From positions 1-32,658 of the forward strand of contig CANNRA010000004.1 of NCBI GenBank assembly GCA_947507735.1: a DNA stretch of 32,658 nucleotides, written 5' to 3'. How positions within the stretch are numbered: the stretch's first letter is position 1; each line of letters starts with the position of its first letter. A program made the translations under genes and the position numbers. This DNA comes from Actinomycetota bacterium. GTDB lineage: Bacteria > Actinomycetota > Thermoleophilia > Gaiellales > Gaiellaceae. Below the pieces are notes generated by a model. It saw nothing but the letters and a program-made list of their open reading frames with translations. It did not search any database and was not told the DNA's origin. Positions 2,257 to 26,957 of the stretch are shown here, piece by piece.

Positions 2257-4098
2257 TCACGAGTGTAGCTGGGGGTTTCGGCGCGGTGCCGCTGCGCGCT
2301 CGCGGAGCCTGCGCCAGGGAACGAGCGGCCCGGCAATCGTGGCGCTGACGAGGAAGGCGGAGGCGACGAGCGGCAGCGATGCGGTGCCCCGTACGGGAGC
2401 CACGGTCAGACCGGCGAGCACGAGGCCGAATCCGGTGAGCCACCGGCCGCTGCGCCCGCGCAGGAAGGGTAGGGCCGCAGCGGCCGCGGCCAGCACGACG
2501 GCCTCGGCAGCGATCGCGGGCCGGTGCTCCAGCACCTGCGCCAGCGCGCGCAGCACGGTTAGCGGCTGCAGGACGTTGTTGATGCCGAGCCCGGCGAGCG
2601 GTGCGACGCCGAACGGCAACGCGTTCCCCACCAGGCCGCAGGCGAGCACGCCCCCGAGCACGAGCGTCACGGCGAGCGCGATCCGGCGTGGCAGCGAGCG
2701 AACATGCAGCACTGCGAGCGGCACCAGGCCGAGCAGCGAGACCGCGCCAAGCACGGGCGCCAGCGCGATCAGCAGGCCCTCGGCGGGGCGGCGACGGAAG
2801 GCGAACAGCCACACGGCGGCGAACGCGGCCCAGGCAGCACCTGCACCGAAGGCGATGTTGCCGAGCGGCAGGATCGGCACGGCGAGCGCGAAGGCGAAGG
2901 CCCAGCCCGGCAGCGTCAGGCCGAGGACGGCGGCGACAAGCGCTGCGAGTGGCGCCCCGCCCGTCGGGAAGAAGGGGATCGTGGCGGCGGCCCAGCCGGC
3001 GAGCAGCGCTGCCAGCCCGGCGATCGCTAGCCGCTCGTTGGCGGGGCGCGCGAGCGTCGGGGCCGAGAGGCGAGGGGTGGCGATGACGCGGCGCGGGGCC
3101 TTGCTGCGCGGGCGCTGCGGCCGGTCGCCGCCGGAGCCGTTCCCGTCGTCGTTGCCGCCACCGCCACCGCCACCGCCAGTGCCACGGCGGCGCTTCGGCT
3201 GCTCCTTGCGACGCGGCCGGTCGGGGCGCTCACGGGTGCGCTCCGGCTTGCGGGAGCGGTTGCTCGTGGTGTGGCGTGGCGCAGCGCGCAGGGCGGCGGC
3301 GAGCGCCTCGGCGGAGGGGCGGTCGGCCGGATCGAGCGAGAGGGCGCTATCGACGAGCGAGAGCAGTTGCTTCGGCAGGTCGGGACGCTGGCCGCCGAGC
3401 GGCTCGGCGCCGATGCGAATGCCGCGCGCGGTGTCGAGCAGCGAGCCCTTCCAGAACGGGTGCTGGCCGGCGAGCGCCTCCCAGAGCAGGACGCCGATCG
3501 CCCAGATGTCGGCGGGCGGGCCGCCCTTGTGGCCGCGTAGCCGCTCCGGCGAGATGTACGCGAGCGTGCCGGGGACGTCGCCGTGGGCGGTGAGCGTCTC
3601 CTCCTCGGCCACCAGCGCGAGGCCGAAGTCGAGCAGCTTCGCGTGGATGCCGCCATGGCCCTCGGCGAGCATGATGTTCGACGGCTTGACGTCGCGGTGG
3701 ACGATGCCGGAGCCGTGGGCGTGCGCCAGCGCGTCGAGGATCTGGGCCGCGGCCTCGATTGCCTCGCCGTCGCGCAGTTGGCCGTTACGGATCGCGTCGC
3801 GCAGCGTGCCGCCGGCGATGTACTCGTAGGCGATGTAGACGTGCCCCGGGTCGCGCCCCAGGGCGTAGGCGCGCAGCACGTGGGGGTGGCGCAACTGTGC
3901 GGCGGCGCGTGCTTCGCGCTCGGCCCGCTCGCCTGCCCGTCCCTCGCGGGCGACGATCTTGAGCGCCACCTCGCGGCCGGTCGGTTCGTGCACCGCGAGC
4001 CACACCGATCCCGAGCCGCCAGAGCCGAGCGGGCGCAGGGGCCGATAGGCGCCGAGGACGAGGTTGGTGGTCGGAAGTGCTTCTGCTGCTGCGCCCAT
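2257..4098 (-). CDS. Ser/Thr protein kinase with Arg/Gly-rich linker and polytopic C-terminal membrane domain
   Basis: Kinase motifs LGSGGSGSVW, VALKIV, HRDVKPSN, DFGLAL, SPERL, DIWAIGVLLWE; basic/poly-Gly linker; then several hydrophobic segments. Confidence 0.93.
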   Translation of the reverse strand: MGAAAEALPTTNLVLGAYRPLRPLGSGGSGSVWLAVHEPTGREVALKIVAREGRAGERAEREARAAAQLRHPHVLRAYALGRDPGHVYIAYEYIAGGTLRDAIRNGQLRDGEAIEAAAQILDALAHAHGSGIVHRDVKPSNIMLAEGHGGIHAKLLDFGLALVAEEETLTAHGDVPGTLAYISPERLRGHKGGPPADIWAIGVLLWEALAGQHPFWKGSLLDTARGIRIGAEPLGGQRPDLPKQLLSLVDSALSLDPADRPSAEALAAALRAAPRHTTSNRSRKPERTRERPDRPRRKEQPKRRRGTGGGGGGGGNDDGNGSGGDRPQRPRSKAPRRVIATPRLSAPTLARPANERLAIAGLAALLAGWAAATIPFFPTGGAPLAALVAAVLGLTLPGWAFAFALAVPILPLGNIAFGAGAAWAAFAAVWLFAFRRRPAEGLLIALAPVLGAVSLLGLVPLAVLHVRSLPRRIALAVTLVLGGVLACGLVGNALPFGVAPLAGLGINNVLQPLTVLRALAQVLEHRPAIAAEAVVLAAAAAALPFLRGRSGRWLTGFGLVLAGLTVAPVRGTASLPLVASAFLVSATIAGPLVPWRRLRERAAAPRRNPQLHS

Positions 4099-5334: not shown

Positions 5335-5823
5335 GTGCTGGCCTTCCTCTCGTCGGGTGTCGCGGCCTGGGTCGCGGTGAGTGCTGCGGTCGCTGCTGGC
5401 GTATCGCTGGTGCTGGCTGCCTGGTTCGCCACCCGGATCCGCTCGATCCGCGCTGGCCAGAAGGTGCTGCTCGGCGGCGGCAAGGGCGACCTGATCGACT
5501 TCGCCGTGTCGCTGCAGGCGCGCATCGACGACCTGCATCGTGCCGTGGACGAGGTCGCGGCCGGCCTCTCGCGCGTCGACCGCCGTGTGGACGGCTCGCT
5601 GTCGAACGTGGCCGTGCTGCGCTACGACGCCTACGAGGACACGGGCGGCCAGCTCTCCGCGTCGGTGGCACTGCTCGACGGCGCGCGCACCGGCCTCGTG
5701 CTGACGGCGATCCAGGGCCGCGACCACGCGCGCATCTACGTCAAGAAGCTGGATCACGGCCGTGCCACGATCGCGCTCTCCCCCGAGGAGATCGAGGCGG
5801 TCGAGCGCGCAATGACGCCGTAA
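5335..5823 (+). CDS. DUF4446 family protein
   Basis: N-terminal TM, then QARIDDLHRAVDEVAAGLSRVDRRVDGSLSNVAVLRYDAYEDTGGQLSASVALLDGARTGLVLTAIQGRDHARIYVKKL. GTG start at 5335, just after the upstream stop. Confidence 0.85.
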   Translation: MLAFLSSGVAAWVAVSAAVAAGVSLVLAAWFATRIRSIRAGQKVLLGGGKGDLIDFAVSLQARIDDLHRAVDEVAAGLSRVDRRVDGSLSNVAVLRYDAYEDTGGQLSASVALLDGARTGLVLTAIQGRDHARIYVKKLDHGRATIALSPEEIEAVERAMTP

Positions 5824-5894
5824 CCCCACCTTCACCGTTGCTGCACCGGGGCGTGACGCTGCTGCACCCGCCCCGCCCGTTACACTCGCGATTC

Positions 5895-24668: not shown

Positions 24669-25589
24669 ATGACTGCCGCACCGCGCAATCGCCGCTCCAT
24701 CCTCGCCGTCCCTGGCTCCTCCTGGAAGATGCTCCAGAAGGCCGCGACGCTCCCCGCCGACGTCGTCTTCATCGACATGGAGGACGCGTGCAGCCCGCTG
24801 GAGCGCACCGACGAGACGCGGCAGCAGGTCGTGCGCGCACTCACCGAGCTGGAGTGGGTCGCGCCGACGCGTGAGGTGCGCATCAACGACGTCACGACGC
24901 ACTGGTGCCACCGCGATCTCGAGGTGATTGCCGTCGGCGCCCGCGAGCACCTGCACGGCATCGTGCTGCCGAAGGTGGAGGACGCGAGCCACGTCCACTT
25001 CGTCCATCACCTGCTGAACCAGCTCGAGGCCGAGCACGGCATCCCCGGGCGTCGCTGCATCGAGGCGCAGATCGAGACCGCGCGCGGCATGGTCAACGTC
25101 GAGGCGATCGCCCAGGCCTCCGACCGCATCGAGACGATCGTCTTCGGGCCCGGCGACTACACCGCCTCGCTCGGCATCGTGCAGCTCTCGGTGGGCGCCA
25201 TCGACCCGCTGTACCCGGGCGACCAGTGGCACTACGCGCTGTCGCGGATCCTCACCGCAGCCCGGGCCTACGGCAAGCAGGCGATCGACGGGCCGTTCAC
25301 GCAGATCAGGGATCTCGACGCGTTCCGCGAGGTGGCGACGCGCTCGCAGCGGCTCGGCTTCGACGGCAAGTGGGCCGTCCATCCCGACCAGATCGCCATC
25401 CTCAACGAGGTGTACTCGCCGTCGCGCGAGCAGTTCGAGAAGGCGCTCGCGCTGGTCGAGGCGTACCGCGAGGCGACCCACGGCGAGACCCGCCGCGGCG
25501 CCGTCGTCCATGACGGCGAGATGATCGACGAGGCGAGCGCGAAGATGGCGAACGCGATCGTGACGCGCGGGCGAGCCGCGGGGCTGTAG
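24669..25589 (+). CDS. HpcH/HpaI aldolase / CoA ester lyase (malyl-CoA/citramalyl-CoA lyase-like)
   Basis: RRSILAVPGSSWKMLQKAATLPADVVFIDMEDACSPLER...CIEAQIETARGMVNVEAIA...IVFGPGDYTASLG...GFDGKWAVHPDQIAILNEVYSPS. Confidence 0.93.
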   Translation: MTAAPRNRRSILAVPGSSWKMLQKAATLPADVVFIDMEDACSPLERTDETRQQVVRALTELEWVAPTREVRINDVTTHWCHRDLEVIAVGAREHLHGIVLPKVEDASHVHFVHHLLNQLEAEHGIPGRRCIEAQIETARGMVNVEAIAQASDRIETIVFGPGDYTASLGIVQLSVGAIDPLYPGDQWHYALSRILTAARAYGKQAIDGPFTQIRDLDAFREVATRSQRLGFDGKWAVHPDQIAILNEVYSPSREQFEKALALVEAYREATHGETRRGAVVHDGEMIDEASAKMANAIVTRGRAAGL

Positions 25590-25622: not shown

Positions 25623-25666
25623 CTTCACCGAACGGTCACCGCCCGGTGACCCGACTCGCACCCTGA
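25623..25666 (+). promoter_or_regulatory. PHO-box-like array of four 11-bp direct repeat units
   Basis: CTTCACCGAAC / GGTCACCGCCC / GGTGACCCGAC / TCGCACCCTGA, contiguous and in 11-bp register, upstream of a secreted phosphoesterase gene. Confidence 0.6.
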
Positions 25667-25721
25667 CGGCGCCGCCGCGCTCGTAGCGTCCGGGGGGTCA
25701 TCCGACTCGAGGGGATCCCCT

Positions 25722-26957
25722 GTGAAGAAGCCGTTCTCCCGCGCCGTCCTGGCTGCGGGTCTCGCACTCGCTGTTGCTGCCGCTGCGCTCGCGGGCACCG
25801 CGCTCGCCGCCGGCAAGCCGACCGTCAAGGCGGGCAAGCGTTCCGCCGCTGCGCCGCTGACCGTTGCCGTCATTGGCGACTTCCCGTACGGGCTGAACAA
25901 CGCGGACGTCTCGGAGTCCGACGCTGCGCCGGCGTTCGTCAAGCGGGTCAACGCCGACCCGGACGTGTCGCTGGTCGTCCATGTTGGCGACATCCACTCT
26001 GGCAAGCAGGTGTGCACCCAGGCGTACGACGAGGCGATCGCTCGCATCTTCTCCGGCTTCGCCGATCCGCTCGTCTACACGCCGGGCGACAACGAGTGGG
26101 CCGACTGCCACAAGGCCGCTCAGGGCGGCGGCGTCTACAACGCCACCACCAAGAAGGTCGAGCTCGTCATGGACGCGGCCGGCAACCCGCAGAGCTTCGC
26201 GAGCGGCAACCCGCTCGCCAATCTCTGGCTCGTCCGCCAGCTCTTCTTCGCGAAGGCCGGCACGACCCTTGGCAAGAACGCCATGCAGGTCGACTCGCAG
26301 GCCACCACGTTCGACCCGACCCACCCCAAGGACGCGCAGTTCGTCGAGAACGTGATGTTCGAGAAGGGCGGCGTCCTCTTCGTCACGGTGAACGTGCCGG
26401 GCGGCTCGAACAACGACCAGGATCCCTGGTACGTGACCCCCGTCGCCTCGGCCGACCAGCTGCGCGAGGCCGCCGAGCGCAATGGCGCCACCGCCCGTTG
26501 GCTGAACGCCGCGTTCGCGAAGGCGAAGGCCGACAAGGCCGCCGGCGTCGTCGTGATCTCGCAGGCCGACATGTGGGATCCGGAGAAGGGCGCCGACCAT
26601 CAGACCGGGTACGACGTGCTGATCACTGCGTTGAAGATCAACGTGAAGAGCTTCGCCAAGCCGGTGCTGATGTTCAACGGTGACTCGCACGTGTACCGCT
26701 CCGACAACCCGCTGTCGCCCACTGCGACCTGCGTGCTCGACGGTGCCACGACCTGCGTGTCGGACTACAACGTCCACCCGGCGATCGGCATCGACCTGCC
26801 GAACTTCCATCGCGTCGTCGTGCACGGCTCGACCGCCCCGCTCGAGTTCCTCAAGCTGACGGTGGACACCACGAGGAACGCGCCCAACGGCGACACCGCG
26901 TTCGGCCCGTTCGCCTGGGAGCGCAAGATCCAGGCCGATCTGATCAAGACGGCCTAG
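25722..26957 (+). CDS. Secreted metallophosphoesterase-like protein
   Basis: Signal peptide; calcineurin-like motifs VAVIGDFPYG, VVHVGDIHSG, YTPGDNEWADC, LMFNGDSHVY. GTG start. Confidence 0.85.
   Translation: MKKPFSRAVLAAGLALAVAAAALAGTALAAGKPTVKAGKRSAAAPLTVAVIGDFPYGLNNADVSESDAAPAFVKRVNADPDVSLVVHVGDIHSGKQVCTQAYDEAIARIFSGFADPLVYTPGDNEWADCHKAAQGGGVYNATTKKVELVMDAAGNPQSFASGNPLANLWLVRQLFFAKAGTTLGKNAMQVDSQATTFDPTHPKDAQFVENVMFEKGGVLFVTVNVPGGSNNDQDPWYVTPVASADQLREAAERNGATARWLNAAFAKAKADKAAGVVVISQADMWDPEKGADHQTGYDVLITALKINVKSFAKPVLMFNGDSHVYRSDNPLSPTATCVLDGATTCVSDYNVHPAIGIDLPNFHRVVVHGSTAPLEFLKLTVDTTRNAPNGDTAFGPFAWERKIQADLIKTA

What the first reader, a model, noticed from the sequence alone, without database searches (positions are those of the whole stretch)
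25623..25666. Four contiguous 11-bp repeat units resembling a PHO box upstream of a secreted phosphoesterase
CTTCACC-GAAC, GGTCACC-GCCC, GGTGACC-CGAC and TCGCACC-CTGA lie in exact 11-bp register, each with ACC at positions 5-7. Streptomyces PhoP boxes are tandem 11-nt units with a GTTCACC core. The downstream gene encodes a signal-peptide-bearing metallophosphoesterase, a plausible Pho regulon member. A TAGCGT -10 candidate follows at 25684-25689.
Basis: partly seen in the sequence, partly recalled or inferred. Interest (0 to 1): 0.68.

Follow-up and report, generated by a model that had tools for sequence, protein, structure and literature searches.

The report
PHO box ahead of secreted phosphatase
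A stretch of four 11-letter DNA repeats in an uncultured actinobacterium looks like a genuine phosphate-starvation switch in front of a secreted phosphatase-type gene, because the same switch precedes this genome's known phosphate genes; it is a convincing new example of a known kind of control site.

Summary
The PHO-box reading survives independent tests. A matrix built from pstS promoters of related genomes (own genome excluded) ranks 25623 first in the window (21.7 bits; 0 of 20,000 shuffles reach it). In about 166 kb of this genome the only comparable sites lie upstream of pstS, a divergent response-regulator/histidine-kinase pair, and a response regulator-ppk1-ppx operon; unrelated sites score 13.3 or less. 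Of 12 genome-wide places within 2 mismatches of GTTCACC-N4-GTTCACC, only three are intergenic: pstS, regulator-ppk1 and this one. Upstream of the gene's homologues, GTTCACC pairs (Actinobacteria) and CTGTCAT pairs (Proteobacteria) peak at exactly 11-nt spacing (z 9.4 and 5.7), only next to the start codon. Sister species lack both gene and array. Refinement: units 2-3 also form a perfect 8-2-8 palindrome, resembling the inverted repeat reported for RegX3. No binding or expression has been measured. Verdict: a PhoP/PhoB-type PHO box, new member of a known kind. The family-wide Pho link of this uncharacterised secreted metallophosphoesterase is the more interesting part.

The parts
25623..25633 (+). 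PHO-box unit 1, CTTCACC-GAAC
   Evidence: 6 of 7 to GTTCACC; start of best PWM hit in window
25634..25644 (+). PHO-box unit 2, GGTCACC-GCCC
   Evidence: 6 of 7 to GTTCACC
25645..25655 (+). PHO-box unit 3, GGTGACC-CGAC (weaker head-to-tail; better match when read inverted)
   Evidence: 5 of 7; forms palindrome with unit 2
25656..25666 (+). PHO-box unit 4, TCGCACC-CTGA (degenerate, ancillary)
   Evidence: 4 of 7; comparable to TCGTACC as last unit at regulator-ppk1
25634..25651 (.). Perfect palindrome GGTCACCG-CC-CGGTGACC overlapping units 2-3
   Evidence: inverted repeat I5; only zero-mismatch copy in the genome
25684..25689 (+). Candidate -10 element TAGCGT
   Evidence: CGTA conserved at this place in homologues of G021, the Kiruna MAG and G052; no sigma-70 consensus promoter reported
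25722..26957 (+). Secreted calcineurin-like metallophosphoesterase, 411 aa, GTG start, signal-peptide-like N-terminus; Shine-Dalgarno-like GAGGGG just upstream
   Evidence: PF00149 25.7 bits over cut-off 21.5; AlphaFold model pLDDT 86; Foldseek top hits purple acid phosphatase and GpdQ
24669..25589 (+). Upstream neighbour, HpcH/HpaI (CitE-like) lyase; 3' flank of its sister-species copies has no array
   Evidence: PF03328

Best explanation
25623-25666 is a PHO box: a tandem array of 11-bp direct-repeat units, oriented towards the metallophosphoesterase gene, on which a PhoP/PhoB-type response regulator binds head-to-tail when phosphate is scarce and recruits RNA polymerase to the -10 at 25684, so that a secreted phosphatase or phosphodiesterase is made to release phosphate from organic esters. 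Shown computationally: exact array, independent matrix score, same array at the genome's own pstS and regulator genes, conservation of spacing and position upstream of homologues in two phyla. Inferred: binding by one of the two PhoP-like regulators of this genome, activation rather than repression, and the enzyme's activity.
For: Array exact. Matrix from 12 relatives' pstS boxes: window best 21.65 bits, next 17.4; own genome pstS 28.7, regulator/kinase 24.4, this site 21.7, regulator-ppk1-ppx 19.2, remaining unrelated sites at most 13.3; mirror-image matrix control at most 12.6 in 198 kb; leave-one-out pstS boxes 18.6-31.1 bracket it; 0 of 20,000 shuffles. Genome pattern scans: 13 hits against 4 for the control, the only intergenic ones at pstS, regulator-ppk1 and here; GTTCACC-N4-CGTCACC has 0 or 1 mismatch only at three Pho loci. 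Relatives' pstS upstream arrays and regulator upstream arrays. Homologue spacing test: Actinobacteria z=9.4 and Proteobacteria z=5.7 at exactly 11 nt, absent at four offset control positions. G052 homologue has CTTCACC-CTCC-GTGCACC. Sister species lack gene and array together.
Against: No binding, transcription or phosphate-response data. Units 3-4 are weak. The two closest homologues (G021 and the Kiruna MAG, about 60% identity) have only degenerate arrays; no TIGR00975 PstS was found in G021. The palindrome is not part of a canonical PHO box. In Actinobacteria 12-nt spacing is also raised (z 5.6). Enzyme activity is unproven: the invariant residues include GDNE and GDxH where I would expect GNHE and GHxH.
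Confidence: 0.87

Rival explanations
1. The functional element is the palindrome GGTCACCG-CC-CGGTGACC at 25634-25651, an operator for a symmetric dimer (TetR/GntR-type repressor, or a RegX3-like regulator using inverted repeats), and the direct repeat is incidental.
For: Perfect 8-2-8 palindrome, only zero-mismatch copy in the genome. RegX3 of M. tuberculosis is reported to use an inverted GTGAAC repeat with a 5-7 nt gap (PMC7525159); GGTCAC-N6-GTGACC resembles it, and RegX3 is among the best PDB matches of this genome's regulator.
Against: No second near-copy of the palindrome stands out in the genome (pattern hits equal the control). The G052 homologue keeps direct repeats without the palindrome. 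pstS and regulator arrays of the order are direct repeats.
Confidence: 0.07
2. The inverted repeat is a transcription terminator or attenuator hairpin of the upstream CitE-like gene.
For: Hairpin GGTCACC-GCCC-GGTGACC lies 45 nt after the stop codon and is formed in the predicted fold.
Against: No T-run, no terminator called; regional folding energy no better than shuffles (z=+1.04); in two sister species the 87-88% identical upstream gene has no such hairpin sequence and is followed directly by a different cassette.
Confidence: 0.03
3. The array is an 11-bp box for a different OmpR-family regulator with similar sites (MtrA-like) rather than the Pho regulator.
For: From general knowledge, several OmpR-family regulators bind tandem 11-bp units and their sites can look alike; two paralogous regulators, 68% identical, exist here.
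Against: The same matrix marks pstS, the regulator/kinase pair beside pst/phoU, and regulator-ppk1-ppx, all phosphate genes.
Confidence: 0.03

Closest known systems
PhoP PHO boxes of Streptomyces coelicolor (direct repeat units of 11 nt, GTTCACC core)
   Same: 11-nt head-to-tail units, GTTCACC-like core, several units of falling conservation, upstream of a gene for phosphate acquisition; CA pairs 9 bp apart as described in PMC7244524
   Different: Order-specific second and third units (CGTCACC, CTTCACC, CGYTACC at pstS and regulator genes); this site has GGTCACC and GGTGACC, giving a palindrome; the lineage is uncultured and has two PhoP-like regulators
PhoB Pho box of Escherichia coli (CTGTCAT-N4-CTGTCAT)
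   Same: Same 11-nt architecture; proteobacterial homologues of this gene show CTGTCAT-like pairs at 11-nt spacing
   Different: Different core sequence
RegX3 sites of mycobacteria (inverted GTGAAC repeat with 5-7 nt gap, per PMC7525159)
   Same: Units 2-3 form GGTCAC-N6-GTGACC; also a phosphate-starvation regulator
   Different: Here the conserved element among relatives is the direct repeat
Calcineurin-like phosphoesterases: purple acid phosphatase, GpdQ
   Same: Best structural matches of the model
   Different: Only 10-11% identity; residues equivalent to canonical His metal ligands seem replaced (invariant GDNE, GDxH); no sequence match in PDB

Membership tests
PhoP/PhoB-type PHO box | At least two direct-repeat units in 11-nt register with 7-nt core | tested here: met
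   Four units in register, two with 6 of 7 matches
PhoP/PhoB-type PHO box | Matrix score above background | tested here: met
   Order-specific matrix, 21.65 bits, best in window; 0 of 20,000 shuffles
PhoP/PhoB-type PHO box | Same array at core Pho genes of the same genome | tested here: met
   pstS, regulator/kinase, regulator-ppk1-ppx
PhoP/PhoB-type PHO box | Cognate response regulator and sensor kinase present | tested here: met
   Two OmpR-type regulators and a HisKA/HATPase kinase beside pstS, a pstC-like permease and phoU; for the C54 regulator PhoB is the best NCBIfam match but its equivalog cut-off is not reached (178 of 296 bits)
PhoP/PhoB-type PHO box | Conserved upstream of homologous genes | tested here: met
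   11-nt spacing z 9.4 and 5.7; G052 array; only degenerate in G021 and Kiruna
PhoP/PhoB-type PHO box | Binding by phosphorylated regulator and phosphate-dependent transcription | not testable with these tools
   Needs EMSA, footprint, reporter
RegX3-type inverted repeat | GTGAAC inverted repeat, 5-7 nt gap, at several Pho genes of the genome | tested here: not met
   Palindrome found only here; other Pho sites are direct repeats
Intrinsic terminator | Stable G+C hairpin followed by T-run | tested here: not met
   None called; no T-run
Calcineurin-like metallophosphoesterase | PF00149 domain and fold | tested here: met
   25.7 bits over cut-off 21.5; fold matches PAP, GpdQ
Calcineurin-like metallophosphoesterase | Canonical metal ligands GNHE and GHxH | tested here: inconclusive
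   Family invariants include GDNE and GDxH; not superposed on a metal site

The most novel reading that the evidence does not exclude
This uncharacterised family of secreted metallophosphoesterases with altered metal ligands is a standard phosphate-starvation enzyme, controlled by PHO boxes in both Actinobacteria and Proteobacteria, alongside PhoA, PhoD and PhoX, and is gained as a gene-plus-box cassette.
Probability: 0.5. Interest if true: 0.55.

Novelty: new member of a known kind. Interest (0 to 1): 0.4.

Why it matters
It extends the PHO-box code (GTTCACC-N4-CGTCACC-N4-CGTCACC at pstS, similar arrays at the regulator gene) to an uncultured actinobacterial order, and it assigns a testable role, phosphate scavenging, to a widespread secreted enzyme family that has no named function. 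In environmental genomes such boxes can flag which unknown secreted hydrolases are made under phosphate limitation.

Tried and rejected
Terminator reading. Palindrome as a repeated operator: genome scan equals control. A Streptomyces matrix: the source paper is not held, so a local matrix was built. pstS loci on the minus strand were first scanned in the wrong orientation, corrected. Sequence search of the enzyme in PDB gave nothing. The array ahead of the HNH gene at 5820-5868 was followed and is not conserved in sisters. Paper searches found no description of this enzyme family as a Pho member, nor a Pho regulon study of this lineage (which guessed Thermoleophilia; the order was not identified), but the library is partial.

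Full report
Observation. The sequence at 25623-25666 reads CTTCACC GAAC GGTCACC GCCC GGTGACC CGAC TCGCACC CTGA, exactly as reported. It lies in the 132-nt gap between an HpcH/HpaI (CitE-like) lyase gene ending at 25589 and a GTG-started gene at 25722 with a signal-peptide-like N-terminus and a PF00149 metallophosphoesterase domain. Units 2 and 3 also form a perfect palindrome, GGTCACCG-CC-CGGTGACC.

Is it a PHO box? The window belongs to a 2.16-Mb draft genome (233 contigs). I avoided testing with the consensus alone. From 61 genomes (own plus 60 relatives), pstS loci were fetched. Of the 18 loci over the family cut-off, 14 have a GTTCACC-type pair scoring at least 11 of 14 with 11-nt spacing upstream, most as three units of the kind GTTCACC-N4-CGTCACC-N4-CGTCACC. 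Summed over loci, the score at 11-nt spacing (203) stands clear of all other spacings from 7 to 17 nt (160-174). By eye one locus counted as low-scoring (L105), and one scored in another register (L117), also have such arrays.

A 29-position matrix from 12 of these, own genome excluded, was applied to the window. The best hit on either strand is 25623, plus strand, 21.65 bits; the next is 17.4. None of 20,000 dinucleotide shuffles of the intergenic region reached it, although the best came close at 21.3. Leave-one-out scores of the training boxes run from 18.6 to 31.1. In about 166 kb of this genome held as loci (selected as pattern hits, so enriched for lookalikes), the sites of 19 bits or more are pstS (28.7), the gap between a response regulator and a histidine kinase (24.4), this site (21.7) and a response regulator-ppk1-ppx operon (19.2; a shifted register of the same array 17.6). 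Unrelated sites reach at most 13.3, and a mirror-image matrix at most 12.6.

Genome-wide pattern scans agree. GTTCACC-N4-GTTCACC with up to 2 mismatches gives 13 hits (12 places) against 4 for the reversed pattern. By inspection of the flanking reading frames only three places are intergenic: pstS, regulator-ppk1 and this one. GTTCACC-N4-CGTCACC matches perfectly only at pstS, and with one mismatch only at regulator-ppk1 and regulator/kinase; at two mismatches this site is one of about 40, so that pattern alone would not single it out. Neighbouring genes on those contigs are pstS, a binding-protein-dependent permease, phoU, kinase, regulator (C93) and ppk1, ppx (C54). The two regulators are 68% identical. 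Regulator genes of most family members carry the same array upstream.

Does the array go with the gene? Among 60 related genomes only G021 and G052 have a homologue; the Kiruna MAG is a further close one (its kinship is inferred from 60% protein identity). G052 has CTTCACC-CTCC-GTGCACC 70 nt before its start codon, without the palindrome. G021 and Kiruna have only degenerate arrays, and no TIGR00975 PstS was found in G021. In two sister species the neighbouring lyase is 87-88% identical, but the metallophosphoesterase and the array are both absent, and a PemK/MazF-type toxin-antitoxin pair sits there instead. The array therefore belongs to the phosphoesterase gene and not to the 3' end of the lyase.

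Wider family. Eighty loci with homologues were fetched from genome contigs. In 20 actinobacterial upstream regions, window excluded, the best GTTCACC pair exceeds shuffles most at 11-nt spacing (z=9.4; next 5.6 at 12). In 22 regions labelled mostly as proteobacterial, the best CTGTCAT pair stands out only at 11 nt (z=5.7; all others at most 1.7). The signal vanishes at four other positions in the same loci. In 523 kb around homologues only two sites reach 17 bits, and one of them is itself 88 nt upstream of a homologue (L034). The enzyme family therefore appears to be under Pho control in two phyla. This is a statistical statement about sequence, not a measurement; the homologues are not phylogenetically independent, start codons were chosen by rule, and I chose the two groups by hand.

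The product. The model (pLDDT 86) matches purple acid phosphatases and the glycerophosphodiesterase GpdQ (probability 1.00, about 10% identity). The family invariants include GDNE and GDxH where canonical members have GNHE and GHxH (my knowledge), so catalysis should be tested and not assumed.

Mechanism. Most likely a phosphorylated PhoP-type regulator binds units 1-2 first, then 3-4, and activates transcription from the -10 at 25684. That units are occupied in order of conservation is described for Streptomyces (PMC7866108; PMC6283541); here it is inferred. The palindrome might let the regulator bind in an inverted arrangement, as reported for RegX3 (PMC7525159), but no other Pho site found in this genome has it.

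Conclusion. It is a new member of a known kind. The remaining uncertainty is experimental.

Noticed in passing
window 5820-5868: Five in-register 11-bp units (CGTAACC-CCAC-CTTCACC-GTTG-CTGCACC-GGGG-CGTGACG-CTGC-TGCACCC) before a TACACT -10 and an HNH endonuclease gene (GTG 5895); second-best matrix score in the window, 17.4 bits, but only a trace (7.7) in one sister species and nothing in the other. Chance or a species-specific box.
   Followed up: partly
G000 contigs C54 (L141) and C93 (L142): Two paralogous PhoP-like response regulators, 68% identical, each with its own PHO-type array: one leads ppk1-ppx, the other is divergent from a kinase beside pstS.
   Followed up: partly
L170 and L171, about 2410-3040: Sister species carry a PemK/MazF-type toxin-antitoxin pair between the CitE-like lyase and the downstream genes where this genome has the phosphoesterase: a variable site.
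   Followed up: partly
window 25722-26957, alignment A2: Invariant GDNE and GDxH motifs in place of canonical GNHE and GHxH in a calcineurin-like fold suggest an altered metal site.
   Followed up: no
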